This document shows, one piece after another, positions 22,617 to 60,744 of a DNA stretch of 64,000 bases. Source of the stretch: Anaerolineales bacterium (GTDB taxonomy: Bacteria; Chloroflexota; Anaerolineae; Anaerolineales; DRMV01); NCBI GenBank assembly GCA_026996855.1, contig JALWJZ010000103.1:22185-86184 (forward strand), written 5' to 3'. Under the pieces are notes generated by a model that had not been told where the DNA came from, searched no databases, and saw nothing but the letters and a program-made list of their open reading frames with translations. The position numbers and the translations under genes were made by a program. How positions within the stretch are numbered: position 1 is the first letter of the stretch; each line of letters begins with the position of its first letter.

Positions 22617-22688
22617 GGGAGTCGTCCTTTTTTTCAAGGGGTGAAAAAACTATACATCACAGCAAGGCGCTTTGTCTACTGGTGTCCA

Positions 22689-22832
22689 AAATCCAAAGCG
22701 GCACCAAGGTGCCGCACTCCAAAATCTAAAGCGGCGTCGAGCCGCCGCACCCCAAAACCCAGAGCGGCGCCCAGGCGCCGCACTCCAAAAGCCAAAGCGG
22801 CGTCGAGGTGCCGCACTCCGAAAAACGCAGAG
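22689..22832 (+). repeat. Four tandem ~34-bp GC-stem repeats
   Basis: AAAGCGGCACCAAGGTGCCGCACTCCAAAATCT and three variants. Confidence 0.88.
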
Positions 22833-31822: not shown

Positions 31823-31886
31823 CAGGCGGAGGGAGCGGGATTCGAACCCGCGGTGGGCGCGAGGCCCACAGGGGATTTCAAGTCCC
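31823..31886 (-). pseudogene. Displaced 3' fragment of tRNA-Ser(UGA); left attachment repeat of the element
   Basis: 64-bp repeat with one mismatch to 60653-60716; lacks the 5' 28 nt of the tRNA. Confidence 0.92.
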
Positions 31887-40379: not shown

Positions 40380-41194
40380 AGAAGGAACCCCACGAAAGGC
40401 ATGAAGTAAAAGATAGCCGCGGCCAACACCAACTGGCTGTCCAGTTTCTTGGCCCGTGCCATAACGTCTGTGCGATATTCACGAGCCATAGCGCGGGCAA
40501 TTTCCGACATGAGAAAAGCCCCCTGGGTACCCTTCCGGGCCACCATGTCCAATTGGACGGCCAGCATCAAAATTTCCGGCACACCGCGGGAAAACTTGCG
40601 GGCATAATCCAGGAACATGCCCACCGCAGGGGGACGGGAAAACAGCGGACGTCCGGTTTTCCGAGCCTGCTCGACGGCCTCAGCAATGAAACGGTGAAGC
40701 GGGCCTGAGAGTTGCGCGGCGCGTTCCAAAGCCAGGTCCGGTGATGCGCCCGCGGCCAGTTCCGCAGCCATGACAGTTGCCAATTCAGGAAGTTGACGTT
40801 TAGCCAATCGCTTCGCGCGGGAGGCCCGGTTTCGTACTTTGAGGATGGGGTAATACGTGAGAAGCAGGGGCAGAAACCAGGCCAACCCTTTTGGAATGCC
40901 AACAACCAGGAAAAGGGCCAGATACCCAAATGCCGTCATGACCGCGGCTTCCCCAAGGACGCGGTACGCCGTCACGTTTTTCAAGTACCCGGCTCGCTGC
41001 GCCCAGGTCAAATCCTCTCGGATACGCTTGAGGGAAAACGGGAAACGCTTGGCCAACCAAGCCCCAAATTGCTCCAAGGTACCCCCTTCTCTTCCGCGGT
41101 ATTCAGCCAAAATCGCGGTCGGACGGCGAGATAGTCCCAAATCCAAGGCCCAATATACGGCCAGGCCCAAAGCAAACGCTGCGAAGAAAGTCAT
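40334..41194 (-). CDS. tadC: Tad pilus platform protein TadC-like
   Basis: T2SSF-like; LPELATVMAAELAAGASPDLALERAAQ. Confidence 0.88.
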   Translation of the reverse strand: MTFFAAFALGLAVYWALDLGLSRRPTAILAEYRGREGGTLEQFGAWLAKRFPFSLKRIREDLTWAQRAGYLKNVTAYRVLGEAAVMTAFGYLALFLVVGIPKGLAWFLPLLLTYYPILKVRNRASRAKRLAKRQLPELATVMAAELAAGASPDLALERAAQLSGPLHRFIAEAVEQARKTGRPLFSRPPAVGMFLDYARKFSRGVPEILMLAVQLDMVARKGTQGAFLMSEIARAMAREYRTDVMARAKKLDSQLVLAAAIFYFMPFVGFLLWVLGAPVFSMFASP

Positions 41195-42111
41195 AGGCTC
41201 ACCTCCCGAATGAGGCCCTGGATATAGAAATAGCCCACCACCCCCCAGACCACGAGAAGCACCAAAAGTACCTGATTGAACGGCTGGTAAAACAGGGCTT
41301 TGGTCTGGGGGTTGGACATGATGACAACAAGACCGGTACCCAAGGCCAACAAAATCACTCGGATAGTACCCCATGCACCGGCCGCCGCGGCCATGGCCTC
41401 GGCGCGGGCGTCCAGGATGTGGGTGAGGTTCTCGGCCACCATGTTGAAAGCCTCTACATAACCCACGCCGCCGGTTTCCCACACGCGCTTCAATTCCCGA
41501 AGGAACAGCACCAGAGTTGGCGAAAGCATTTCGGCTTCCTGGATGGCTTGTTGAAAAGCGCGGCCGGGTTCCCGGTGAAGCCGATGGACGAAGGTCTGCA
41601 TCCACTTCCTCAGCGGGCTGTTCTGCTCCATGCTTTCGAGCACTTCATCCAGGGCTTGCAAAAGATTGGGGGTGATGGGAAGGGTGGCAGCCAGGCGGGT
41701 CAGCACCAAAGGGAGTTCCTTTTCCATGCGCTGACGAAAGTCCTTCCACTTGGTCTCTACCCAGGTGCGCACCAGGAAATAAGATGCTACAGGGGATGCA
41801 AGGACAAAGACAGGTGGTAGAAACACCGCGGCCAGACTGCCCACCACGACGGTGGAAGCCAGAACACCAAACCAAAAGGCCCTGTTTTCCCAACCTTTGA
41901 CGTCCAGGCCCAGGGATTGGAAAGCCAGGCGAATGGGCAACGCCCGGTCAACAATCAACGTTTTTTGGTCGTCACGGCTTCGCATGTATTGCCGCAAGGT
42001 AGTCTGCACCCGGTGGCTATTCCAAAGGGATAGTCCCAAATCCAAAGCCCAGTAAACAGCCAGGCCCAAAGCAAACGCCACTATGATGGGTATAACCAAA
42101 TCCATCATCAT
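41191..42111 (-). CDS. tadB: Tad pilus platform protein TadB-like
   Basis: T2SSF-like; ELPLVLTRLAATLPITPNLLQALDEVLE. Confidence 0.88.
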   Translation of the reverse strand: MMMDLVIPIIVAFALGLAVYWALDLGLSLWNSHRVQTTLRQYMRSRDDQKTLIVDRALPIRLAFQSLGLDVKGWENRAFWFGVLASTVVVGSLAAVFLPPVFVLASPVASYFLVRTWVETKWKDFRQRMEKELPLVLTRLAATLPITPNLLQALDEVLESMEQNSPLRKWMQTFVHRLHREPGRAFQQAIQEAEMLSPTLVLFLRELKRVWETGGVGYVEAFNMVAENLTHILDARAEAMAAAAGAWGTIRVILLALGTGLVVIMSNPQTKALFYQPFNQVLLVLLVVWGVVGYFYIQGLIREVSL

Positions 42112-43334
42112 CGCCGCTCCCTGGTGAGGGGTTCCATGGAAGTGTCGCCGTAACGGTACACCTGGCGGAACTTCACATCTCCGCCTTTGAAACCTGCAAC
42201 TTCGTGAACGGCCAGCACCCGCCGTTTGCCGTCCGCCCAACCCACGGTGACCACCACATCTATGGCCTGCTCGAAGATGGCTTTGGCGGCCTCCATACGC
42301 ACCTGGGCGTCGGCGAACATGATGACGGCCAGACGAAACACCGCGTGCTGGGGACTTTCCGCGTGGAACGTAGACAGACCGGGGTGGTCGGACATCTGGG
42401 CGCGGAACAGGGCCAGGGCTGCATCGCCCGTGCGCACCTCACCCACGATGAGCCATTGCGGTGCCATGCGCATAGCATCGTCCACGCCGTCCTTCAGGGT
42501 GTACGGCGGTACCTGGCTTCCGGGCATGGAAGACCGGGCTTCGAGCGTGACCACATTGGGATGCCGGAGCCAGATTTCTTCAGGGTCCTCAATCTTCACC
42601 ACGCGTGCATCGGCCGGGATGCCCCCGTTGGCCAGGGCACTGAGGAAAGTGGTCTTGCCCGTGGCCGTGCCACCAATGACCAAAACCCGCAGTTTTCGCC
42701 CGACCGCGGCGCATAAAGCGTCCATGACAAAATCCGGGGCCATTTCCCAGGCAATGATGTCCTGGGGCAGGATGGGTCGGGCTTCAAACAAACGAATGTT
42801 AATGGCGGGGTACCCTTCCCCTGGGGCCAACACAGGATGCACGATTTTTACACGTGCGCCCCCCGTTCCATGGAACCGAGGCAAACGAGCGTTTACTGAA
42901 GGATTGGCTTCGTTCAAAGCCCGCCCCGTAGGGGCCAACAGGGCTTCCACAGCGCGCCAGGCTTCTTCTACTGTGGGGCGATAATCCCACGGCTCGAAAT
43001 GCTCAGCCCCTTTTCGCAACAACCACACCGAGCCATCAGGGTTCAAAGCAATCTCGGTCAGGTCGTTTCGAGAAGGAGGCAATAGCGCACCAAGAAAACC
43101 CATCCCGCCCACTTGAGCGGCTGCTCGGCGCGCCATATCTTCCACCAACACCGGCCCCGCGGTTAGACCCTTTTCTGCAAGGAGGCGGTGCACTTCTTGG
43201 CGGGCCTCTTTCAAGAGGGCTTCTGTATCCCGAACCACGGCAAGGGGTAGCCGTCCTAACCGTTCCACAGCTTCCCGAACGATGTTGTCCTGGTGCTCTG
43301 TGGTTAGCGTTTGGGCAAATTGCGTCCAGGTCAT
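42108..43334 (-). CDS. tadA: Tad secretion ATPase (CpaF/TadA)
   Basis: VIGGTATGKTTFLSALA; PQWLIVGEVRTGDAALALFRAQMSDHPGLSTFHAES. Confidence 0.94.
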   Translation of the reverse strand: MTWTQFAQTLTTEHQDNIVREAVERLGRLPLAVVRDTEALLKEARQEVHRLLAEKGLTAGPVLVEDMARRAAAQVGGMGFLGALLPPSRNDLTEIALNPDGSVWLLRKGAEHFEPWDYRPTVEEAWRAVEALLAPTGRALNEANPSVNARLPRFHGTGGARVKIVHPVLAPGEGYPAINIRLFEARPILPQDIIAWEMAPDFVMDALCAAVGRKLRVLVIGGTATGKTTFLSALANGGIPADARVVKIEDPEEIWLRHPNVVTLEARSSMPGSQVPPYTLKDGVDDAMRMAPQWLIVGEVRTGDAALALFRAQMSDHPGLSTFHAESPQHAVFRLAVIMFADAQVRMEAAKAIFEQAIDVVVTVGWADGKRRVLAVHEVAGFKGGDVKFRQVYRYGDTSMEPLTRERR

Positions 43335-43353
43335 GACTCCCTCGCTTCCGGTC

Positions 43354-44616
43354 TCACGTTCGCACCTTTACCCGCACCGGTCCCATCCGATACTCCTGGG
43401 CTGCGTTGGATGCGGCTGCGACCGCGGGCATGGGCGGAACCAATGCATTGACAAGTCCCTGAATAGCCTTTCGAAACTCCCCCACACCCAGTGGGGACTG
43501 ACGTCGGTCCTGGGCCACGGCCACCGCGGACAGGAAAGGAATGGTCGCGGCCAAAGGCGGGAAAGTGGCCCCCGACACGTCCCGCAGCATCTCTGTTGCG
43601 GCCCGGTGCCATTCTTTGGGCGCGATGCGTCCGCCCACCATGTTCAGGGCCACCAAGATGTGATTCGCGGGCAGGCGGTGCTCGCCGGACACGCGTTCGG
43701 TGACCGTGCGGTAGGCTTCCACAGTGCTCAGGATGTCGGCCAGAGAAGGTCTGGCTACCAACACCAAATGAGTGGCCGCAGTGATGGCTTGGGCCGCGAT
43801 ATTCGCGTTAGGGGTGTCCAGGACGAGCAGGGCATACCCTGCCCTGGCCGCGGTGCTCACCAACGCAGACAGCGAAGCCGGGTTTTCGGTAGGCAATGCG
43901 GAAAAGCGGGCCTCGGTGAGTACATCCGGGAACCCCCCTAACACGGCCAGGCCGTTCAGCATTTGCAAACTTTCCTGCAACCCTTCTACCGAGGGATTGG
44001 CCATCCAGGATGTGATATTGGGTTCAGGCTTCAAGCCCAGAACCAGGGGGTTGGTGTCCGGGGTATCCAGGCCCACCAACATGGTGGGCACGCCGCGAGT
44101 TGCGGCTTCCAGGGCCACTGCCGCGGCCAATGTGCTTTTCCCCGTACCGCCTGCATGATTCCAGAACATCACCACGCGAAAACCCACCACCAACGCGGGG
44201 CCAGATGGGGCCGCTTGCGGCGAAACCTCTGCCCCACCCCATCCCCCTGTGGTTGTCATGACTGCGGCGGCCACAATGCGGTCGGGAAGTTTGTGCAGGT
44301 CTTCGAAATCCCCTATATGCACCTCCCGCACCCTGGGCATCTGGGCAAAGGCCTGACGCATCTCCGCGGCCTGGGGCGGCAGGACCAGAAAGACCTCCGC
44401 CTGTACGGCCTGCAGGAACCGCTGCAGGGGGTCCGGCCCACCGAAGAGGGTGGCATCCAGGACCAAGGCCTGGGGGTTGTAGGCCATCTTGGATTGCAGG
44501 TCTTCGACGCTCAGGGCCACCGAGACCACATGGAGCCGGTCGTCGTCGCTGAGCACCGGCCCCCATACGTTGAGGCGAGGCATGGGAGCGGCAATCAAAA
44601 CCGTGACCTTGGTCAT
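43354..44616 (-). CDS. TadZ/CpaE-like MinD/ParA-type ATPase
   Basis: FWNHAGGTGKSTLAAAVALEAA; N-terminal receiver-like domain. Confidence 0.85.
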   Translation of the reverse strand: MTKVTVLIAAPMPRLNVWGPVLSDDDRLHVVSVALSVEDLQSKMAYNPQALVLDATLFGGPDPLQRFLQAVQAEVFLVLPPQAAEMRQAFAQMPRVREVHIGDFEDLHKLPDRIVAAAVMTTTGGWGGAEVSPQAAPSGPALVVGFRVVMFWNHAGGTGKSTLAAAVALEAATRGVPTMLVGLDTPDTNPLVLGLKPEPNITSWMANPSVEGLQESLQMLNGLAVLGGFPDVLTEARFSALPTENPASLSALVSTAARAGYALLVLDTPNANIAAQAITAATHLVLVARPSLADILSTVEAYRTVTERVSGEHRLPANHILVALNMVGGRIAPKEWHRAATEMLRDVSGATFPPLAATIPFLSAVAVAQDRRQSPLGVGEFRKAIQGLVNALVPPMPAVAAASNAAQEYRMGPVRVKVRT

Positions 44617-45461
44617 TTGCTTTCCTCCGCTTGCTCGGATGGTTGCGGAAACACCACCATAGCGGGCACGAAGAAGCCCGAAGTCCGAATGCTGACCTCA
44701 GCATTCGGGGGAACCAAAAAGAGGCTCAAGCGCGCGCCATCCGACATTTGCAAAGCAGCCAGCAATTCCACGGGGTTCACAGGCATGGTGACGTTTTCCG
44801 CTCCGAACGTTTGAAACTCGTACACCACATTCACCGGCTCTGCAGGTACGGCCACCACCACTGCCCCCTCTTTAGATTTCATGGAGCCAATACTCCCCAA
44901 AAGGGGGTCCTCACTGCCCGTTTCTTGCAAAGCCTGGAACTCCGGCGATACGTATAGCACCCGCAACCCTTCAATGACCACCTTAGCGTAATCCCCTGAG
45001 ACCAGGGGCGTTTGCGCTTCCCCTGCTTCTTCCACAGGGAAACGGGCCAGGATGGCCTGGACAAAAGTCTGGTCGTCAATAAGAGCGACCACGCCCACCT
45101 TGTCACCGGGCTTGAGCACACCCGCGACGCCGGAGGCATCGTCCACCTGGATGGCCATCGCACGCTCGTCGGGATTGAGGTCGAACTGCCATGGTCCCAG
45201 ATGGGCCTGACGAATCACATCCCCCGCGCTCCGTGGTACGGCCAGGGTCTGGCCCAAGACGCTCTCGATGGATGTCAATGCGTCTTCAGGGGCCAGGTTT
45301 TCGGGCATGGCTTGCAGGGTCACGTCTCCTTCCGAGATGACCTGACCGGGGGCCAGGTCGCGAGCGGCGACCACAACTTGAACGGTTTGAGTCTGTGAAA
45401 GCAAGTACACCACCGCGGCCACCAACAGAGCGATGCCAATGCGCAGCGCTTTACTCAACAT
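44613..45461 (-). CDS. cpaB: Flp pilus assembly protein CpaB/RcpC (SAF domain)
   Basis: VVVAARDLAPGQVISEGDVTLQAMPENLAPEDALTSIESVLGQTLAVPRSAGDVI. Confidence 0.92.
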   Translation of the reverse strand: MLSKALRIGIALLVAAVVYLLSQTQTVQVVVAARDLAPGQVISEGDVTLQAMPENLAPEDALTSIESVLGQTLAVPRSAGDVIRQAHLGPWQFDLNPDERAMAIQVDDASGVAGVLKPGDKVGVVALIDDQTFVQAILARFPVEEAGEAQTPLVSGDYAKVVIEGLRVLYVSPEFQALQETGSEDPLLGSIGSMKSKEGAVVVAVPAEPVNVVYEFQTFGAENVTMPVNPVELLAALQMSDGARLSLFLVPPNAEVSIRTSGFFVPAMVVFPQPSEQAEESK

Positions 45462-45639
45462 GGCTTTTCTCCTTCTTCACGGTCTGTTTGGCAATCAACA
45501 AAAGCGTCAAGGCTTCTTCCAGGGATTTCCAATCCACGTCCAGCACATGCTGGTTTTGGTCCACCACCACAACCAGGGCCCGGTTGCCTTGCAGTAAACG
45601 CTTCACGGTCTCTTCCAGAACTCGTTTCACATCGTTCAT
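45451..45639 (-). CDS. Small hypothetical protein in tad operon
   Basis: 62 aa; overlaps neighbours by a few nt. Confidence 0.6.
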   Translation of the reverse strand: MNDVKRVLEETVKRLLQGNRALVVVVDQNQHVLDVDWKSLEEALTLLLIAKQTVKKEKSHVE

Positions 45640-45905
45640 GGCGCCACCTCGTTTGCACTGGTTGCCGTCATCGTGGGGCCGGGTGTCACGGTTGGCGTGT
45701 ACACCCAATGTGGAGGCGGAGTGACCCCCTGCCACCATCCCGAAAGGGTGGGTGTGGGTGTGGCCGTGGAGGGCACGGTCACCATCCATGCCGTAGGCGT
45801 TGGGGTTCTCCCGCCATTTCCACTCCAGGACAGACCTCCCAGGGCCATAAGCATGGCCAGCAGAAAAACCAACAGCACCAGGAACCCCATGACGCTTTGC
45901 TTCAT
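45636..45905 (-). CDS. Small membrane-anchored Pro/Thr-rich protein
   Basis: MKQSVMGFLVLLVFLLAMLMALGG then Pro/Thr-rich tail; ATGA overlaps on both sides. Confidence 0.65.
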   Translation of the reverse strand: MKQSVMGFLVLLVFLLAMLMALGGLSWSGNGGRTPTPTAWMVTVPSTATPTPTLSGWWQGVTPPPHWVYTPTVTPGPTMTATSANEVAP

Positions 45906-48900
45906 ATCCGTATCCTCCCCAGTCGCGCAGCGATTTCCGTGTCGTCTGGCTCCGGTACGTCCAGCATCAAGGGTTTGAAAAGCACGGGGCGCTGATAAGC
46001 CCGGTCGAAGGTGTATGGGAAGCGACCAATTTGCAGGCCAATGGGCATATCGGTGAGGAAGCGCCGCCATTCCTCATCGCGGAAACCTTTCTCCGAGAAA
46101 CCCAGGGCGGCCAGCACGATGTCCTTGTCCCTGGGGTTCTTGAGGAAGGCGATGCACAGGTTGTTGCAGGAACTGATGATGTCCTGGGGAATGAGGGAAG
46201 GGGCCTGGGTGATGACGTGCAAACGCACGCCGTACTTCCGCGCATCCCGGAACATGTCTCCGAAACGCTGGGCCGCAGAGATGCCCTCCTCGGCCTCTTC
46301 AAAGGACGCGGCCCCAAAAATCTTGTTGGCCTCTTCGAAGAAAATTTGCAACAACGGCTCATCGGGACCGGCCAGGTGGCGCACCCGGCGGGTCATCATG
46401 TCCATGTAGAGGTGCCAGCCCAACCATCCCAGCAGGAAAGCCTTACCGAAGTCGTCCAGGAAGGAGCCGCCTTCCACAATGAGGATGCCCCAGGGCCGGG
46501 CCATTTCCTCCACGGGCACCACGTCCGGCCCCGGCTCGAACATCCGGGACGCCGCTCCCTGAACCAGGGGGTTGAGCCGGTACAGAATGCCCTCCAGCAC
46601 CCCCTGAAGCATGGTGTCCCGCGGAGGCACGGTAGTCAGTTTTTCCTGGACCTGACGGTACAGGTCAGCCAGGCCCACCTTGCTACTTCGATGCACCGCG
46701 ATGGCTTGCTTTTGTTCCCAGGTGAGGTCGCTCAGGGGTGTTCCCGCGGAAACACCCACCAGGTCGGCCTCGTCGGGCTGCACCCTGCCCCATTTGGGGT
46801 CGGTGCGGATTTCGGGGTCGTCCACCAGAACCCCGGCCCGCAGGTACACTTGTCGCAACGCGTCCAGAAGTTCCTGTTTCTGTCGGCGCACGCCCAGGCG
46901 GGCGATGGAACCAAAGATGTCCGCAAAGGCTCGCCACTGGGTTTCGGGGTCAATGTTGCGACCGATTTGGAGGGGGTTCCAGCGCAGGGGCCGGGGAGCA
47001 TCGGGCCAGAGTTGACGAATGTCCACGTGCCCTTCCAGGCCGGGCGCGTTGAGAAGCGCCCGCCAGCCCGCGCCGAAGTCCAGCACCACGGTGCGGGTGC
47101 GCCATTTGAGCGTGGTCTCATAGGCCATGCGGATGGCCGATACCGATTTCCCCCACCCCGTGTCCCCTGCAAACAGGGTATGGAAAAGCCGCCGTTGGTC
47201 CAGGCGCACAGGCGCGGTGGTGAGTTCGTGGGTAGTGGGCGAAACCTGGTGCCCCAGCACCACATCGCCGGGCATGTCGGGATAGAACCCCATGCCCTCC
47301 GGGATGGGTGCCATGACGGTCACCGTGGACCCTTCTTCGATGAGCGCGGGTGCGGTATATGCGGCCACCTGGCCCGCGGTGAGTAGGGTCGTGTACTTGG
47401 TCCAGAGTTTTCCACCAAAGGGGTCGTTCTCCGCAGGTCCATGCCAGGGCAGAAAAGCCAGGGCGTGATAGCGCAGGGGTTCCACGTCCTGGGGTTCTGG
47501 ATGCACGGTAAGCACGGGTGTGGGCACGTTCGGCCCATGGAAGGCCTGGGGAACTAGGCTTTCCACCGCGGCTGCGGCCTCTTCGTCGTCCACCCATATC
47601 AGGGCCTCGGTCATAAAGCCGCCCTCCGCGCTGGCCTGGTTGAGGATACCCTCCAGTCCCCGCAGGATTTCCGTGAGGCGCATGGCCACGTCGTCTTCGG
47701 TTTGCCAGGAACGCCCAATGCTGACGCCGGGCACCAGGCCCGCGCTCAGGCCCGAAACCCATCCGTATCCACCGGCATGGCCTGCCGCGTTGGACACGCC
47801 TTTGCTCTCTGCATGGGACAGCCCCCACCCCTCACTTTTCGTATCCGCTTGCGACCAGGTGTCGGATTGGCTTCTTGTGGTGGACCAGAACCGGGACACG
47901 GACACGGATTTCCCTTTCGTATGTGCGTGGCTGTGGGTGACACTGGTTGTATCCGCCGTCCCCCAGGTTTCTGACCGTCCCGTGGTATGCGCGGTGCCAT
48001 GGGTCACCGTGGTACTGGAAAAGGTGCCCGATGTTGTCGTCACTCCCCACGTACTCGCACCGCCCACAGAAGCGCTCACCGTATCGGAGGTGGAAGTGGT
48101 ATTGGCATCACTTTGCATGGTACTGATGGAGCCCGACAACGATGCACTCCGTGACGCGCTCTGGGTACCGGACCAGCCGACTTCTCCAGACACATTGGCG
48201 TTCCATCCACCATTCACGCCTGCCCCTAACGTTCCAGGTACACCCAGGCTCACGTTGCCTCCGGCATGATAACCTGCACTCCCCCCTACACTGGCGCTTT
48301 GTGTAAAGGATTGTCCCACCGTGAGGCTTTGGCCTACGGTTATGCCTTGGGTGGTGCCGGAAGTATGCGTTTTGGCCGTCCCCGTTGTATGGGCACCACC
48401 TATGGACCAGCTCGAAGAGCCTCCTGCGCTATGACCCACAGAGCCACTTGTTCCCTCAGTATGGCTGACGGAAGTGCTGTGGGTCGTGCTTTCAAAGGTG
48501 CCCACGGAATGGCTCACCGTATGTGCCCGTCCGTGCGCCACGCCTGTGGTGTCTGCTGAACTGTGGGTAACGGTCACGCTTCCACCAGTCGTATGGGCCA
48601 CGCCCTCTGTGTGGGCATAGCCCTCAGTATGGGCCTGGCCCCACTGCCGGGATACCCCGTCCGTGTGGGCCACACTTTCCGCACGTCCTGCCATGCCCGA
48701 GTGGGAAAGGGTGCGACCCAGGGCGGCCATGATGGGCACGCCCAGGGAAAAGCCGATACTGAGGGCCCCTCGCTGCCGCGAGGCCACGATGGACGCCAGT
48801 TGCGCCACTTCTACCAGGGTTTTGGACAGATAACGCCGGGGCAGGGCCTCGGCCACGGTCTGAAACACGAAGTTCTTGCGCAACTTGGCCAGGCCCCGGA

Positions 48901-49453
48901 AAAGGATTTCGTTCTGTTCCGCGGCCAGGTCATCGGGTGTGGGATTGGGTAGAGAACCGTCTTCTCCGTACAACCCCCGCCGGGTCTCCCGCGGATCCGG
49001 GAAACCCAGCAGCACCAGGGGACGGCGTGCGGACATGATGAACCGAAGATACCACTCCAGGTACTCCGTCTCCGGAGGCACCGTTCGAGACTGGGGGTAG
49101 TTTGCCAGGGTCGCCAACACCGCGGCCAGCTGTTCCCGGGCTCGAGCGATGGCTTCATCCTTCGTGTCCGCGGTGGCCGCGGCGCCGTAGAACTGCACGA
49201 TGCCCACGTAACGAGGCCGAAACATGCCCATGGCGCTGTATACGAAGTTCACCCCCGCGTTGTACATGCCCCGGATGGCGGCCCACTGCTTTCCCAGAAG
49301 GTCGTAGTCTTCCTTGGCGGCGATGGGGATGGCGTGAAGCCGATGCAGGGCTACTGCCCTGTACAACGTTCGTCCTTCGGGAGTGGCGATGTGGAACCAC
49401 AGCGCGCCCACTTCACCGCCGTTGTCATGTACACCTGAAGCCAGAATACACAT
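45902..49453 (-). CDS. VirB4/TraC/HerA-like ATPase with ~330-aa Ser/Thr/Gly/His-rich insert
   Basis: Walker A FAGDTGWGKSVSA; Walker B-like LLQIFFEEANKIFG; low-complexity insert about aa 251-582. Confidence 0.88.
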   Translation of the reverse strand: MCILASGVHDNGGEVGALWFHIATPEGRTLYRAVALHRLHAIPIAAKEDYDLLGKQWAAIRGMYNAGVNFVYSAMGMFRPRYVGIVQFYGAAATADTKDEAIARAREQLAAVLATLANYPQSRTVPPETEYLEWYLRFIMSARRPLVLLGFPDPRETRRGLYGEDGSLPNPTPDDLAAEQNEILFRGLAKLRKNFVFQTVAEALPRRYLSKTLVEVAQLASIVASRQRGALSIGFSLGVPIMAALGRTLSHSGMAGRAESVAHTDGVSRQWGQAHTEGYAHTEGVAHTTGGSVTVTHSSADTTGVAHGRAHTVSHSVGTFESTTHSTSVSHTEGTSGSVGHSAGGSSSWSIGGAHTTGTAKTHTSGTTQGITVGQSLTVGQSFTQSASVGGSAGYHAGGNVSLGVPGTLGAGVNGGWNANVSGEVGWSGTQSASRSASLSGSISTMQSDANTTSTSDTVSASVGGASTWGVTTTSGTFSSTTVTHGTAHTTGRSETWGTADTTSVTHSHAHTKGKSVSVSRFWSTTRSQSDTWSQADTKSEGWGLSHAESKGVSNAAGHAGGYGWVSGLSAGLVPGVSIGRSWQTEDDVAMRLTEILRGLEGILNQASAEGGFMTEALIWVDDEEAAAAVESLVPQAFHGPNVPTPVLTVHPEPQDVEPLRYHALAFLPWHGPAENDPFGGKLWTKYTTLLTAGQVAAYTAPALIEEGSTVTVMAPIPEGMGFYPDMPGDVVLGHQVSPTTHELTTAPVRLDQRRLFHTLFAGDTGWGKSVSAIRMAYETTLKWRTRTVVLDFGAGWRALLNAPGLEGHVDIRQLWPDAPRPLRWNPLQIGRNIDPETQWRAFADIFGSIARLGVRRQKQELLDALRQVYLRAGVLVDDPEIRTDPKWGRVQPDEADLVGVSAGTPLSDLTWEQKQAIAVHRSSKVGLADLYRQVQEKLTTVPPRDTMLQGVLEGILYRLNPLVQGAASRMFEPGPDVVPVEEMARPWGILIVEGGSFLDDFGKAFLLGWLGWHLYMDMMTRRVRHLAGPDEPLLQIFFEEANKIFGAASFEEAEEGISAAQRFGDMFRDARKYGVRLHVITQAPSLIPQDIISSCNNLCIAFLKNPRDKDIVLAALGFSEKGFRDEEWRRFLTDMPIGLQIGRFPYTFDRAYQRPVLFKPLMLDVPEPDDTEIAARLGRIRI

Positions 49454-49472
49454 TACTGTTTCCTCCTCTTTT

Positions 49473-49535
49473 GGCCAATAGGCCTTAACACCCCTTAAGC
49501 CCGGCCTATAGGCCCTGCAGGAAGGCCTATAGGCC
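49473..49535. repeat. Three GGCC(T/A)ATAGGCC palindromes upstream of the ATPase gene
   Basis: 49473-49484 GGCCAATAGGCC; 49503-49514 and 49524-49535 GGCCTATAGGCC. Confidence 0.85.
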
Positions 49536-50081
49536 CTTTCCGCGCGTGCGCACCTGGGCGATGAGGTCCTCCGGTGTTTGCGGCAACGGTGGATGGGCAA
49601 ACAGGGCCTGGGCCAGCATAGCGAAGAAACCCACGGGGTATGCGTACAGAGCAATGGCGGCCAGGGCTTCCAGGTACGATGCCCCGCCAGCGAGCCAATC
49701 CTGTCCGGTGCGAGCCAGGACCGAGCGGTAGAGCATCACACCCAGGGCAATAAGTACGTACAGGGCCAGGCCCTGGGTGATGCGCCAGTACAGGGCCTGG
49801 GGGTTGAACCGTTCCAAACGCCAGGCCAGCCATCCCCCCAGGGCCATGGCCCCCATCATCAGGCCCACCACCGTAGGAGCAAACACGGCTGTAATCAACA
49901 TGACGGCCAATACCCCGGCCATCCAGCGTCGCCGAAGCGTGTCCTGCTGTTGTAGCAACAAAGGTGCGGCCGCGGCCAGGAGCAACCACAGCCGCCAGGC
50001 CTCCAGCACCGCATACACCACAGCCAAAAAACCGTTGAGCACCCAAAGGCCGGGAAGCCACCAGGGATTTGGCATGGTCAT
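49527..50081 (-). CDS. Polytopic membrane protein, hypothetical
   Basis: ~5-6 TM helices; ATGA overlap with upstream gene. Confidence 0.7.
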   Translation of the reverse strand: MTMPNPWWLPGLWVLNGFLAVVYAVLEAWRLWLLLAAAAPLLLQQQDTLRRRWMAGVLAVMLITAVFAPTVVGLMMGAMALGGWLAWRLERFNPQALYWRITQGLALYVLIALGVMLYRSVLARTGQDWLAGGASYLEALAAIALYAYPVGFFAMLAQALFAHPPLPQTPEDLIAQVRTRGKGL

Positions 50082-51208: not shown

Positions 51209-51553
51209 TTAGGCCCGCCCATCGCCCGCAGGCCGGTAGGCCGAGGACGACAAAGGCACGGGCTCCCCAAAGAAACTGACATGACGCACCGCTACATAGG
51301 TGCTGGGATTTTCCCCCTGCCATAGGGTAACCAGCCTGCCATAGAGCACTACCTGAATCCGACATGGGCCATAGGCTTCAAAATAGGCTCGTGCCAATTC
51401 CGCACCCCGTCCCATCAGCACCACAGGATGCCGCCCACCCAGATAAGGTTTGCCCGTATCCACATGGGTGCGGAGCGCCAGGCGTCCGTCCACCCTCTCG
51501 AAAACATTGCGAATCTCAAGCCAGCCTTGCAGCACCACCACGTTGTTGCTCAT
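51209..51553 (-). CDS. Single-stranded DNA-binding-like OB-fold protein
   Basis: MSNNVVVLQGWLEIRNVFERVDGRLALRTHVDTGKP...VVLYGRLVTLW. Confidence 0.6.
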   Translation of the reverse strand: MSNNVVVLQGWLEIRNVFERVDGRLALRTHVDTGKPYLGGRHPVVLMGRGAELARAYFEAYGPCRIQVVLYGRLVTLWQGENPSTYVAVRHVSFFGEPVPLSSSAYRPAGDGRA

Positions 51554-52443
51554 AGCGCCACCTCTTCCACGGCCCGGGCCAGGTCCTGGGCCGAGGGTTC
51601 CACGTACCGCCGGGTCGTGTCCAGGCTCTTGTGGCCCAGGATACGAGCCACTTTTTCCAGCGAAACCCCGGCATCCACCAGGGACTTGGCAAATGTGTGC
51701 CGAAGCACGTGAGGGGTGGCTTCTACACCCGCTTCCCGAGCCACGCGAGCCACGGCCCGTTGAACCGTGCGCACGGTCAGACCATCCCGGACCGCCCATA
51801 CTTGATCGCCTTCGATGTCAGCATCACGTCGGGTTGTCTTCCATCGGCGTAACGCATCCCGCGCGGCTTTGTTCAGGGGCACCACCCGCTGCTTGTCCCC
51901 TTTGCCCCGTACCAACAGGTGACCCTTGCGCTCGCCGAGCACGACGTCGGACCACCGCAGGCGAACCACTTCGCCAGCGCGCAAGCCCGTGTTCAGCAGG
52001 AACAGGGTGAGCAGGGCGTCCCGCTCGTACACCACCCACCGAACCGGATACCGCAGCCGGGCCACTTGCAAAATCCGCTCCGCAGCCCGCCGCAGGGCAT
52101 ACCGCTCTCGCTTGTCCAGCCATCGAAGGCCGGGCGGTTGCTCCCGGAGCCCAGGTACCCGTCGCGCGGGGTTTTCGGAAATCCGACCCTGATGCCTGGC
52201 CCAGTCCAGCCAGGCACGTACCGCGGCCAGACGACGGTTCACCGTCGCTGCCCGCAGACCTCGACGCTGAAGCCAATTGCGATATTCCCGCACATCGGAC
52301 GGTGTGACCCTCTCAGGTTCCAGAGTCTCACCGTTGGTATGCTCGAACCAAACGGCAAACTGCTGCAAGTCCCGCACGTAGCCTCCCACAGTCACCGGAC
52401 TGGCCTGGGCGCTGAGATGCCGGGCAAAGTCTTCAAAAGCCAT
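51550..52443 (-). CDS. XerC/D-like tyrosine recombinase
   Basis: LLNTGLRAGEVVRLRW; HVLRHTFAKSLVDAGVSLEKVARILGHKSLDTTRRYV. Confidence 0.93.
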   Translation of the reverse strand: MAFEDFARHLSAQASPVTVGGYVRDLQQFAVWFEHTNGETLEPERVTPSDVREYRNWLQRRGLRAATVNRRLAAVRAWLDWARHQGRISENPARRVPGLREQPPGLRWLDKRERYALRRAAERILQVARLRYPVRWVVYERDALLTLFLLNTGLRAGEVVRLRWSDVVLGERKGHLLVRGKGDKQRVVPLNKAARDALRRWKTTRRDADIEGDQVWAVRDGLTVRTVQRAVARVAREAGVEATPHVLRHTFAKSLVDAGVSLEKVARILGHKSLDTTRRYVEPSAQDLARAVEEVAL

Positions 52444-52470: not shown

Positions 52471-53505
52471 TCATTGCACGTAAAGCGCCGCATACGGCGA
52501 TTCTGTGTACTTACGCTCACGCAGGGCTTGCGAGGCCGTCCATGCCTCGCTTTCGTCAGGCACCAGCCCCTGGGCCACCAGGGGCTGAAGTTTTTCGCCC
52601 AATACCCCCCACCAGCGCACCAGGTCATAGTGCTCATCCTTCGCCCGCACTTTCCCACGGGCCAGGTTCACCGCTGCGGCCACTGCGGGCTTTGCCAACT
52701 GACCCTCTTGCGCTTCCCGGAAGCACCGCGTGAACTCGGCCAGCACGTCCAGGCCCGTGACGCGGCCCTCGGTCAGGGCTTGCAGCACGGGTTCCCGAAG
52801 TTTTCGACTCGGAACCCCAGCCGCCCGGAGAAACGCGTCCCAGGCTTTGCGCTCGGCTTTGCCAGGAGGCTTTTCCAGGCGAGAAAAATCAAACTCAAAA
52901 TCCTGTGTGTCTCCCCCTCCGTCGCCGAAGGCGGCGAAGCCGCCGAAGGCGACCTCCCTCTCCCTCTCCCCCACACCCCCTCTCCCTCTGGTCTGGTCTA
53001 TATCTGTATCTGGTCTTAATCTGTTCTTCTTCTTATTCTTAAGGCGTGACACTTCTGGGACACCCCTGTGACCATTGCGTGACGCCAGCGTGACATTAGC
53101 GTGACTATCGCGTGACTTTGGCGTGACATTACCGTGACTTTCAACTTCTTCGTCTTCTCCCTTCTCCTCTTCCCGTTCACGCTCGCGCTGACGCCGCTTG
53201 CGTTCGGCCACCTGGGCGCGAGTCACGCGCGCCTGTTCATCCTCATACCGAGCCACCAAAATGCCCTCCTCCCCCACTTCCACAATGCCCGCCTGTACCA
53301 GGGTGTTCAAATGTGATTCAAATTCGTTTTGGGGAAGGCGCAGCATCCAGGCTACTTGCTCTCGCGTGCCTGGTATGAGTCCCCCTTGCTCATACCGAGC
53401 CGCCAGGGCGTAAAGTTTGAAATAAACAGCCTGAACCTCCAACGGCAACATCCCCAGTTGGGGGTCGTCCAGGGCCGAATCAACGTGCATTTTGAACCAT
53501 TTCAT
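52471..53505 (-). CDS. Phage/plasmid replisome-organizer (DnaD-like) replication protein
   Basis: MKWFKMHVDSALDDPQLGMLPLEVQAVYFKLYALAARYEQGGLIPGTREQVAWMLRLP, charged linker, C-terminal domain. Confidence 0.65.
   Translation of the reverse strand: MKWFKMHVDSALDDPQLGMLPLEVQAVYFKLYALAARYEQGGLIPGTREQVAWMLRLPQNEFESHLNTLVQAGIVEVGEEGILVARYEDEQARVTRAQVAERKRRQREREREEEKGEDEEVESHGNVTPKSRDSHANVTLASRNGHRGVPEVSRLKNKKKNRLRPDTDIDQTRGRGGVGEREREVAFGGFAAFGDGGGDTQDFEFDFSRLEKPPGKAERKAWDAFLRAAGVPSRKLREPVLQALTEGRVTGLDVLAEFTRCFREAQEGQLAKPAVAAAVNLARGKVRAKDEHYDLVRWWGVLGEKLQPLVAQGLVPDESEAWTASQALRERKYTESPYAALYVQ
53046..53138. repeat. Iteron-like array: GTGAC every 11 bp within the replication gene
   Basis: GTGAC at 53046, 53068, 53079, 53090, 53101, 53112, 53123, 53134; degenerate GGGAC at 53057. 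Confidence 0.92.
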
Positions 53506-53638
53506 GATTTCCTCCTAACAGTATGATGATTTCCTCAGCGGCCCTCTGAGCGACGGTTTTCCCAAAAAGTCCTGTGATACCTGGAGCGTTTTTTCCTTCG
53601 CTCAGAGGCTTTCCTGTGAGTTTGTCCTATGCGGCAGG

Positions 53639-53700
53639 CTAAGCGTCCACTAAGCGGCGGCTAAGCGTCCACTAAGCGGTGCCGCTTAGGTGCCGCTTAG
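53639..53700. repeat. 11-bp-period CTAAGCG/CGCTTAG array, putative centromere (parS-like)
   Basis: CTAAGCG at 53639, 53650, 53661, 53672; CGCTTAG at 53683, 53694. Confidence 0.92.
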
Positions 53701-54360
53701 GTTGGAAGAAGAACCTCCGATTTTCCAGGAATTGCTCAAGTTCACCTCCACCTGGGTTTCCTGAGTGATGGCCACAACCCGTGGCCGCAGGGTCCAAATA
53801 CCTTTGCGAACTCGTTCCAAGGCCTCCTCCAGCAACGTCACGACCACTTCGCCTATGCGAGCGTTGCCTGCCAACGTGACAATCCGTTGGTGCATCTCCT
53901 TCGACCACCGATAGGCCAGAACCAACGTGATTTTTCGACTCCGCCCTTTAGGCCTGGGAATGTCTCGCTTCCATCCCGGTTCGCGAACGACTTCCACGGT
54001 CATCCTGCGTGCCTTCGGGTTGGAATTGGGCTGTACCTGCAGCTCAATCTCGCCATCCCGAACGGCATCCAAAGCGGCCGACATCAAAGCCTCTGCCACC
54101 TGGTCCGTAGTGGTCATGTAAGCCTCTGCCAGGCCACGAATGGACTCCCGAACGGCCTTTGCGCGGGTCACCAGGTCCTGACCTGAAACCCAGTACGTGT
54201 AGGACTTGTGCCGCCGCTCCCACTCCCGCCGTCGCTTCTTGGGCTTCGCCCGCGGAATCAGGTCCAGGGGCGAGGGCGGGGTGCCCGGAGCATCCGCCGA
54301 CGGCGAATGGCGGTCGGCAGACGGCAATGTCAGGTTCTCGAAGGGGTCACGTCGCGGCAT
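53686..54360 (-). CDS. Putative partition/centromere-binding partner of ParA
   Basis: 224 aa, helical, in the ParA operon and ending in the CTAAGCG array. Confidence 0.45.
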   Translation of the reverse strand: MPRRDPFENLTLPSADRHSPSADAPGTPPSPLDLIPRAKPKKRRREWERRHKSYTYWVSGQDLVTRAKAVRESIRGLAEAYMTTTDQVAEALMSAALDAVRDGEIELQVQPNSNPKARRMTVEVVREPGWKRDIPRPKGRSRKITLVLAYRWSKEMHQRIVTLAGNARIGEVVVTLLEEALERVRKGIWTLRPRVVAITQETQVEVNLSNSWKIGGSSSNLSGT

Positions 54361-54625
54361 GGCTTTCCTCCCAGGGTGGGGTGACTTCGCCCTGGTAGAT
54401 GGGGCAGTCCACGGGAACGCCGCCCAGATACCCATCATCCAGGGCATCGTCCGAAGCGATTTCCGCTTCCCACTCGTCACGGGTGGCCATGCATACAGGG
54501 CGAGGTTCCAACCCTGCTTCTTCCAGGTCTCCGGCCAAGGCTTCTACTTCCCAGAAGTGTCCCTGGGCATCCCGAACCAGGTAAGCCCGGAAAGCGCATT
54601 CCAAACCACATTCCAGCACCTTCAT
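54347..54625 (-). CDS. Small Cys-containing hypothetical protein (CxLECxFRxYL family, paralog A)
   Basis: CGLECAFRAYLVRD...DCPIYQG. Confidence 0.65.
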   Translation of the reverse strand: MKVLECGLECAFRAYLVRDAQGHFWEVEALAGDLEEAGLEPRPVCMATRDEWEAEIASDDALDDGYLGGVPVDCPIYQGEVTPPWEESHAAT

Positions 54626-54645: not shown

Positions 54646-55479
54646 TCACAAGTGCTTCATCACAGCATCCACCAGGGCTTGGTACTCCCGCGCGGCCCGG
54701 TGGGTGGGGGCATACTCGAAGACCGTTTTTCCCTCCGCCGCGCACTCCCGCAGCACGGTGCTCCGGTGAATGGGCGGGAGCACCGCGTCCCCGAAGTGCT
54801 GGCGCAGCAGGCTCAGGTTGTGCCGACTCTCCCGGGTGCGTTCGTCGTAGAAGGTGGGCAGCACCCCCAGCAGGCGGCCCGACCATCCTCTTTCCGACAG
54901 CGAAGCCAGGGCGGCCACCATCTTGCTCACGCCGTCCAGGGCCAGGAAGTCCACGGCCGCGGGGATGACGACCAGGTCAGCAGCGAACACGGCCCGTTCC
55001 TGAATGCCGCCCACCGAGGGCGCGGTGTCCAGGACCAGCACGTCGTATCGGGCCACTTCGTAGTGAGTGAGCGTTTCGCAGCTATAGCTGACATCCCCGC
55101 TGACGTACACCTCGCTTCTGCTTGAATGGCTTGACACGAAGGCCGTTTTCAACGCCCGGACAATGGCATCCAGGGGGCGGTTCTCCGCGGACAGCACGAT
55201 CTGGGCCGTGCTGGTGGTGGGGTCGCCGGGGAGGACGTCCAGGTTCTCTCGACCGGTCATGCGCACCCATTGCACCGCCAGGGCCGGATCGGGCAGGGTG
55301 AGCAAGTAGAACGCGCCCGGCTCAGGCCGCATCCCTAAAGACACGGCCACATGACCCTGGGGGTCGAAGTCCACCAGCAGTACCTTCAAGCCTTTCATTG
55401 CCAGGCCGTGGGCAAGATGCACCGCGGTGGTGGTCTTGCCCACACCGCCTTTTTGGTTGGCGACCGTAACGACGTTCAT
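54646..55479 (-). CDS. parA: ParA-family partition ATPase
   Basis: VTVANQKGGVGKTTTAVHLAHGLAMKGLKVLLVDFDPQG. Confidence 0.95.
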   Translation of the reverse strand: MNVVTVANQKGGVGKTTTAVHLAHGLAMKGLKVLLVDFDPQGHVAVSLGMRPEPGAFYLLTLPDPALAVQWVRMTGRENLDVLPGDPTTSTAQIVLSAENRPLDAIVRALKTAFVSSHSSRSEVYVSGDVSYSCETLTHYEVARYDVLVLDTAPSVGGIQERAVFAADLVVIPAAVDFLALDGVSKMVAALASLSERGWSGRLLGVLPTFYDERTRESRHNLSLLRQHFGDAVLPPIHRSTVLRECAAEGKTVFEYAPTHRAAREYQALVDAVMKHL

Positions 55480-60597: not shown

Positions 60598-60656
60598 CGC
60601 TCACCTCCGTCGGTGCGGGGGAACCGGGGATGGTCCCCGGCCCCCGCTGGTTCAGG

Positions 60657-60744
60657 CGGAGGGAGCGGGATTCGAACCCGCGGTGGGCCCGAGGCCCACA
60701 GGGGATTTCAAGTCCCCCGCCTTCGTCCACTCGGCCATCCCTCC
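60657..60744 (-). tRNA. tRNA-Ser(UGA)
   Basis: GGAGGGATGGCCGAGTGGACGAAGGCGGGGGACTTGAAATCCCC, long variable arm, GCGGGTTCGAATCCCGCTCCCTCCG. Confidence 0.95.

What the first reader, a model, noticed from the sequence alone, without database searches (positions are those of the whole stretch)
53639..53700. Second exact 11-bp-phased array (CTAAGCG x4 then inverted x2), centromere-like
Seen: CTAAGCG at 53639, 53650, 53661, 53672 and CGCTTAG at 53683, 53694, all 11 bp apart, with an orientation switch. It overlaps the stop of a ParA-operon gene (53686-54360). Knowledge: plasmid par centromeres are often phased short repeats next to parAB. Inference: parS/parC-like site bound by the 224-aa protein.
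Basis: partly seen in the sequence, partly recalled or inferred. Interest (0 to 1): 0.8.

Follow-up and report, generated by a model that had tools for sequence, protein, structure and literature searches.

The report
Seven-unit plasmid-type centromere beside parA
A mobile DNA element in an uncultured Chloroflexota bacterium carries a precisely spaced row of seven short DNA sites, almost certainly the docking row for its DNA-sorting protein; about seventy related elements carry the same layout with different letters, and one amino acid of the protein seems to track one letter of the site.

Summary
In gene orientation the layout is 2 inverted + 5 direct units, directly downstream of parA and the 224-aa gene.

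The 224-aa protein is predicted to be two fused ribbon-helix-helix (RHH) domains, i.e. an RHH dimer in one chain (nearest solved fold: F-plasmid TraY). I recovered 73 tandem-RHH relatives, mostly Anaerolineales. About 70 have a seven-unit array at the same place, usually 1 inverted + 6 direct, gaps ~11,11,11,11,12,12. ParA lies upstream in all 30 loci checked. Genes downstream vary (DnaA_N proteins, other replication genes, integrase), so the array belongs to par, not rep.

Motif letters (CCG[C/T]NNAC) differ by lineage and track the protein: in 34 clusters, strand residue 147 is Arg with G (7), aromatic with C (5), aliphatic/T/S with T (17). Single-RHH relatives have mixed-orientation arrays.

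Best reading: a polar centromere (parS) of a ParA/RHH partition system on a 28.9-kb tRNA-Ser integrative element. Binding by the 224-aa protein ~0.9; centromere role ~0.78. No experiment supports either. New variant of a known kind.

The parts
53627..53700 (-). seven-unit array (proposed centromere). Gene-strand reading: CTAAGCG (53700-53694), CTAAGCG (53689-53683), then CGCTTAG (53678-53672, 53667-53661, 53656-53650, 53645-53639) and degenerate CGCATAG (53633-53627); gaps 11,11,11,11,11,12
53686..54360 (-). 224-aa protein, predicted tandem ribbon-helix-helix DNA-binding protein (centromere-binding protein)
   Evidence: AlphaFold strand-helix-helix twice; Foldseek/VIA top matches F TraY and single-chain Arc; domain 1 vs domain 2 profile E 6e-18
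54058..54207 (-). RHH domain 1 (residues about 52-101)
53803..53928 (-). RHH domain 2 (residues about 145-186), including strand residue 147 (codon 53920-53922) that covaries with motif base p4
54646..55479 (-). ParA-family ATPase, 277 aa, KGGVGKT deviant Walker A, no N-terminal DNA-binding extension
   Evidence: Pfam AAA_31 5e-31, NCBIfam ParA_partition 9e-33 (below its cut-off); sequence
54347..54625 (-). 92-aa ORF between parA and the RHH gene, no family; most relatives have no room for a gene here
53543..53608 (.). imperfect inverted repeat CCTCTGAGCGACGG / CCTTCGCTCAGAGG between array and rep gene; matching CCTCTGAGCGAAGG ... CCTCAGAGG present in L005
52471..53505 (-). 344-aa replication-organiser-like protein (Phage_rep_org_N, just under cut-off), downstream neighbour of the array
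51550..52443 (-). tyrosine integrase of the element
31823..31886 (-). 64-bp direct repeat of the tRNA-Ser 3' part (one att end)
60653..60716 (-). matching 64-bp repeat inside tRNA-Ser 60655-60744 (other att end); bounds a 28.9-kb integrative element

Best explanation
The array is the centromere (parS/parC-like site) of a ParA-type partition module on a tRNA-Ser integrative element. Shown by computation: a seven-unit array with fixed geometry follows the RHH gene in about 70 related loci; ParA lies upstream; the protein is predicted to be two fused RHH domains; strand-2 residues covary with motif bases. Inferred: each polypeptide acts as a ready-made RHH dimer and puts its two-stranded ribbon into the major groove of one unit; the two strands read different half-sites, so each unit has a direction; seven molecules bind at one-turn spacing and form a polar nucleoprotein array whose first molecule(s) face the other way; N-terminal tails (conserved R45, W47 region) contact and stimulate ParA, which positions the excised or replicating element. 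Lineage changes at residue 147 and the matching base would separate the centromeres of co-resident elements.
For: Array with z about 16 in the window. 70 of 73 tandem-RHH loci score at least 39/49, against 6 of 240 other ORF ends in the same loci. Stereotyped spacing: gaps 2-4 mostly 11, gaps 5-6 mostly 12, over 70 loci. ParA in 30/30 loci. Tandem RHH; one family member hits Pfam FitA-like_RHH at 7e-5. Covariation: residue 147 is the top of 170 columns for base p4 (z 10.6); R with G in 7 clusters, aromatic with C in 5, aliphatic/T/S with T in 17, and 33/34 clusters concordant for each of R-G and aromatic-C; L042 vs L097, 87% identical, R147W with GCTGAC to GCTCAC. On a tree, 5 of 9 class changes fall on branches with a p4 change (p 6e-4) and strand-2 columns 146 and 147 rank 1st and 3rd. 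The array follows par, not the downstream gene, which varies; the second rep homologue in this genome (L022) has neither par nor this array. No relaxase found.
Against: No binding, stability or localisation data exist. The array lies downstream of the operon and upstream of rep, so an operator role cannot be excluded. Described type Ib centromeres lie upstream of par and their RHH proteins are homodimers (PMC5016525). Permutation p-values are inflated by shared ancestry; the tree test is moderate, and one co-change (Q with G) comes from an ambiguous reconstruction. The element is integrated, and whether it replicates extrachromosomally is unknown.
Confidence: 0.78

Rival explanations
1. The array is mainly a transcriptional operator: the RHH protein binds it to repress the downstream replication operon (copy-number control), with partition secondary or absent.
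For: It lies between par and rep; in pSM19035 the RHH protein binds arrays that overlap promoters of par and copy-number genes (PMC5016525).
Against: A seven-unit array with fixed geometry is more than an operator needs; ParA is always upstream; the downstream gene varies and can be an integrase rather than rep; no sigma-70-like promoter was seen in 53400-53900 (weak evidence).
Confidence: 0.14
2. Origin iterons bound by the adjacent replication protein.
For: Phased direct repeats next to a rep-like gene.
Against: The array persists when the downstream gene is unrelated; the rep homologue elsewhere in this genome lacks it and has its own internal GTCACG x9 array; motif letters covary with the RHH protein. 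The window rep gene has its own internal 11-bp array at about 53044-53138.
Confidence: 0.03
3. oriT-like site: the TraY-like tandem RHH protein is a relaxosome accessory factor.
For: Best structural match is F TraY, also a single-chain RHH; F oriT binds three TraY molecules, the third inverted (PMC12117103).
Against: No Relaxase (PF03432) or TrwC (PF08751) match in the genome and none among the element ORFs scanned; constant partner is ParA.
Confidence: 0.03
4. RNA structure (terminator or attenuator) at the end of the par transcript.
For: The inverted copies fold strongly in the window (z -4.5; -7.0).
Against: All-direct arrays (L146, L147) do not fold better than shuffles (z 0.3 and 2.5), and only 39 of 74 have z below -2; no terminator-like site found.
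Confidence: 0.02

Closest known systems
Type I partition with RHH-ParB (type Ib): pSM19035 delta/omega, TP228 parFGH
   Same: Small ParA without an N-terminal DNA-binding extension, RHH centromere-binding protein, array of short repeats in both orientations; pSM19035 parS can have 7 repeats and needs at least 4 contiguous ones (PMC9499535)
   Different: Here the RHH protein is two fused domains, the array is downstream of the operon, units are 11-12 bp apart (pSM19035 repeats are contiguous 7-mers), and orientation is largely fixed
F plasmid TraY
   Same: RHH dimer fold in one polypeptide; several molecules in a row on DNA, one inverted; R1 TraY is a single-RHH dimer, a parallel single/tandem pair (PMC12117103)
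   Different: TraY serves the relaxosome at oriT; here the partner is ParA and no relaxase was found
Plasmid R1 ParR/parC (type II)
   Same: 11-bp direct repeats bound by an RHH protein (PMC9426499, PMC5016525)
   Different: ATPase is actin-like ParM; here a Walker-type ParA

Membership tests
Type I RHH-ParB (type Ib) partition | Walker-type ParA ATPase in the operon | tested here: met
Type I RHH-ParB (type Ib) partition | RHH centromere-binding protein | tested here: met
   predicted structure only; one member hits Pfam RHH
Type I RHH-ParB (type Ib) partition | RHH protein is a homodimer of single-RHH chains | tested here: not met
   two RHH domains in one chain; higher oligomers not tested
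Type I RHH-ParB (type Ib) partition | Centromere of direct/inverted short repeats | tested here: met
Type I RHH-ParB (type Ib) partition | Centromere upstream of the par operon (as described in PMC5016525) | tested here: not met
   array is downstream in the window and relatives
Type I RHH-ParB (type Ib) partition | Array-dependent segregation | not testable with these tools
   needs a stability assay
Type I RHH-ParB (type Ib) partition | N-terminal arginine finger that stimulates ParA | tested here: inconclusive
   conserved arginine/tryptophan region near residues 43-47; no functional test
TraY / relaxosome accessory protein | Single-chain RHH fold | tested here: met
   VIA Z 9.6 over residues 52-193
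TraY / relaxosome accessory protein | Associated relaxase and oriT | tested here: not met
   no PF03432 or PF08751 match; other relaxase families not searched genome-wide
Type II ParMRC | Actin-like ParM ATPase | tested here: not met
   ATPase is ParA/AAA_31

The most novel reading that the evidence does not exclude
A polar bacterial centromere: fusion of two RHH domains into one asymmetric reader turned an orientation-indifferent repeat array into a directional seven-site array with fixed gaps, and a one-residue code (147: Arg-G, aromatic-C, aliphatic-T) lets related elements change centromere letters while keeping the layout.
Probability: 0.5. Interest if true: 0.75.

Novelty: new variant of a known kind. 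Interest (0 to 1): 0.62.

Why it matters
It gives partition biology a natural library of about 70 cognate protein/centromere pairs with constant geometry and changing letters, so recognition code, incompatibility and the need for array polarity become directly testable. The 224-aa protein matches no Pfam, NCBIfam or PHROGs model convincingly, so such loci are not labelled as partition systems by those libraries.

Tried and rejected
Viral contigs: no relative found. Plasmid collection: the window protein has no match; the family's one hit, on Chloroflexota plasmid CP069395.1, is a tandem-RHH relative beside an HTH-type ParB and without a visible downstream array. Palindromicity of sites in single- versus tandem-RHH relatives did not differ significantly (p 0.17), so that part of my idea is not supported; only orientation consistency is (0.94 vs 0.51, p 8e-10, not corrected for ancestry). 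For motif base p3 the permutation test favoured residue 150, but the tree and matched-pair tests did not. For p4 the identity-matched pair test ranked neighbouring strand residue 146, not 147, first. L048 and L056 were weak hits with no usable homologue. Three tandem loci (L123, L134, L138) gave no clear array. A PDB profile search gave designed helical proteins and only a weak RHH hit (2k9i, E 0.9). Co-resident copies mostly have different motifs but some share one (G044, G230, G610, G595), so incompatibility is not shown.

Full report
OBSERVATION. CTAAGCG occurs at 53639, 53650, 53661, 53672 on + and at 53683, 53694 on -, every 11 bp. The copy number alone is unremarkable; the spacing is not: the window holds only three exact fixed-period arrays of this kind and this one has the most copies, and a seven-unit score of 48/49 exceeds every shuffle. 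A seventh, degenerate unit CTATGCG lies at 53627-53633. The spaced pair occurs nowhere else in the host genome.

GENES. On the minus strand: ParA (54646-55479), a 92-aa ORF (54347-54625), the 224-aa gene (53686-54360), the array, a 344-aa replication-organiser-like gene (52471-53505) and a tyrosine integrase (51550-52443). A 64-bp repeat of the tRNA-Ser 3' part at 31823-31886 and 60653-60716 (63/64 identical) bounds a 28.9-kb integrative element that contains all of this.

THE PROTEIN. AlphaFold gives strand-helix-helix twice (54-59, 61-80, 85-101; 145-150, 154-164, 169-186), with pLDDT about 90 in both cores. The two halves are homologous to each other (profile E 6e-18). Foldseek's first ten hits are chains of the F-plasmid relaxosome that I read as TraY from their length and range; the second look gives these Z 9.6 and permuted single-chain Arc Z 8.4. 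F TraY is an RHH dimer in one chain, and three copies sit in a row on oriT with the third inverted (PMC12117103). One relative hits Pfam RHH families directly. The model is a prediction; 5 and then 26 related sequences were used.

RELATIVES. Nearest is WFUL01000135.1 (L005, 74% identical): its array is CCTATGCGG/CCGCATAGG with the same 2+5 layout and similar flank. Searches of class, order and phylum samples gave 73 tandem-RHH loci and about 30 with a single RHH, nearly all in the order of the host. ParA is immediately upstream in 30/30 loci checked. Of 73 tandem loci 70 score at least 39/49 downstream of the stop, against 6 of 240 control ORF ends. Seventy loci give consensus CCG[C/T]NNAC with gaps (10-13),11,11,11,12,12 and usually one inverted plus six direct units; the window and L005 have two inverted. 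Genes after the array differ: DnaA_N proteins, HTH replication-like proteins, Phage_rep_org_N, or an integrase. The array therefore travels with par.

SPECIFICITY. Motif letters differ by lineage and covary with the protein. For base p4 the best of 170 columns is residue 147 in strand 2. After clustering at 70% identity (34 clusters): Arg-G 7, aromatic-C 5, aliphatic/T/S-T 17, five others. L042 and L097 are 87% identical and differ by R147W together with GCTGAC to GCTCAC. A tree built without strand 2 places 5 of 9 residue-class changes on branches with a p4 change (p 6e-4), columns 146 and 147 ranking first and third. Ancestry inflates the simpler statistics; I rely on the tree result and the sister pair. 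Window and L005 differ in strand 2 at A149S and Y150F, and their motifs differ at p3 (T to A); this is a single pair.

POLARITY. Adjacent units (2 to 7) agree in orientation in 0.94 of cases in tandem-RHH arrays and 0.51 in the 11 single-RHH arrays with a clear signal. This fits an asymmetric single-chain reader against a symmetric homodimer, but single-RHH loci are few and distant.

FUNCTION. By analogy with RHH-ParB systems, in which a repeat array bound by an RHH protein activates ParA (pSM19035: at least four contiguous repeats; PMC9499535), I read the array as the centromere. Described type Ib centromeres lie upstream of par and use dimers (PMC5016525), so this is a variant. An operator role for rep could coexist. 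The oriT reading is disfavoured by the lack of relaxase matches, RNA structure by the all-direct arrays, and rep iterons by the variable downstream genes and by L022.

LIMITS. Everything is computational. Papers were searched only in the open-licence library, so an existing description of single-chain RHH partition proteins may have been missed.

Noticed in passing
window 53044-53138: A second 11-bp-phased array (GCGTGAC x5 exact, more degenerate) lies inside the 344-aa rep-like gene; the rep homologue elsewhere in the genome (L022, 1812 onward) has GTCACG x9 at 11 bp inside its gene too, suggesting origin iterons inside the rep gene.
   Followed up: partly
window 31823-60716: A 28.9-kb integrative element bounded by a 64-bp tRNA-Ser repeat.
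   Followed up: partly
window 41191-49588: The element carries Tad/Flp-pilus-like genes (T2SSE ATPase 42108-43334, RcpC/CpaB 44613-45461, weak T2SSF) next to a serine-rich HerA-like ATPase (NCBIfam ser_rich_anae_1, 1135 bits) but no detected relaxase; L026 and part of L005 share the HerA-like gene. Possibly an unusual transfer apparatus.
   Followed up: partly
L005 about 1455-1553: Rep gene of the nearest relative holds its own internal 12-bp CGCACA array and a DnaA N-terminal-like C-terminus.
   Followed up: no
L160 3475-4435 (CP069395.1): On a Chloroflexota plasmid a tandem-RHH relative follows ParA plus an HTH-type ParB, with repeated TTTGCCACGTGGCAAA-like palindromes upstream.
   Followed up: no
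window 22685-22832: 33-bp tandem repeat array (about 4 copies), not examined.
   Followed up: no
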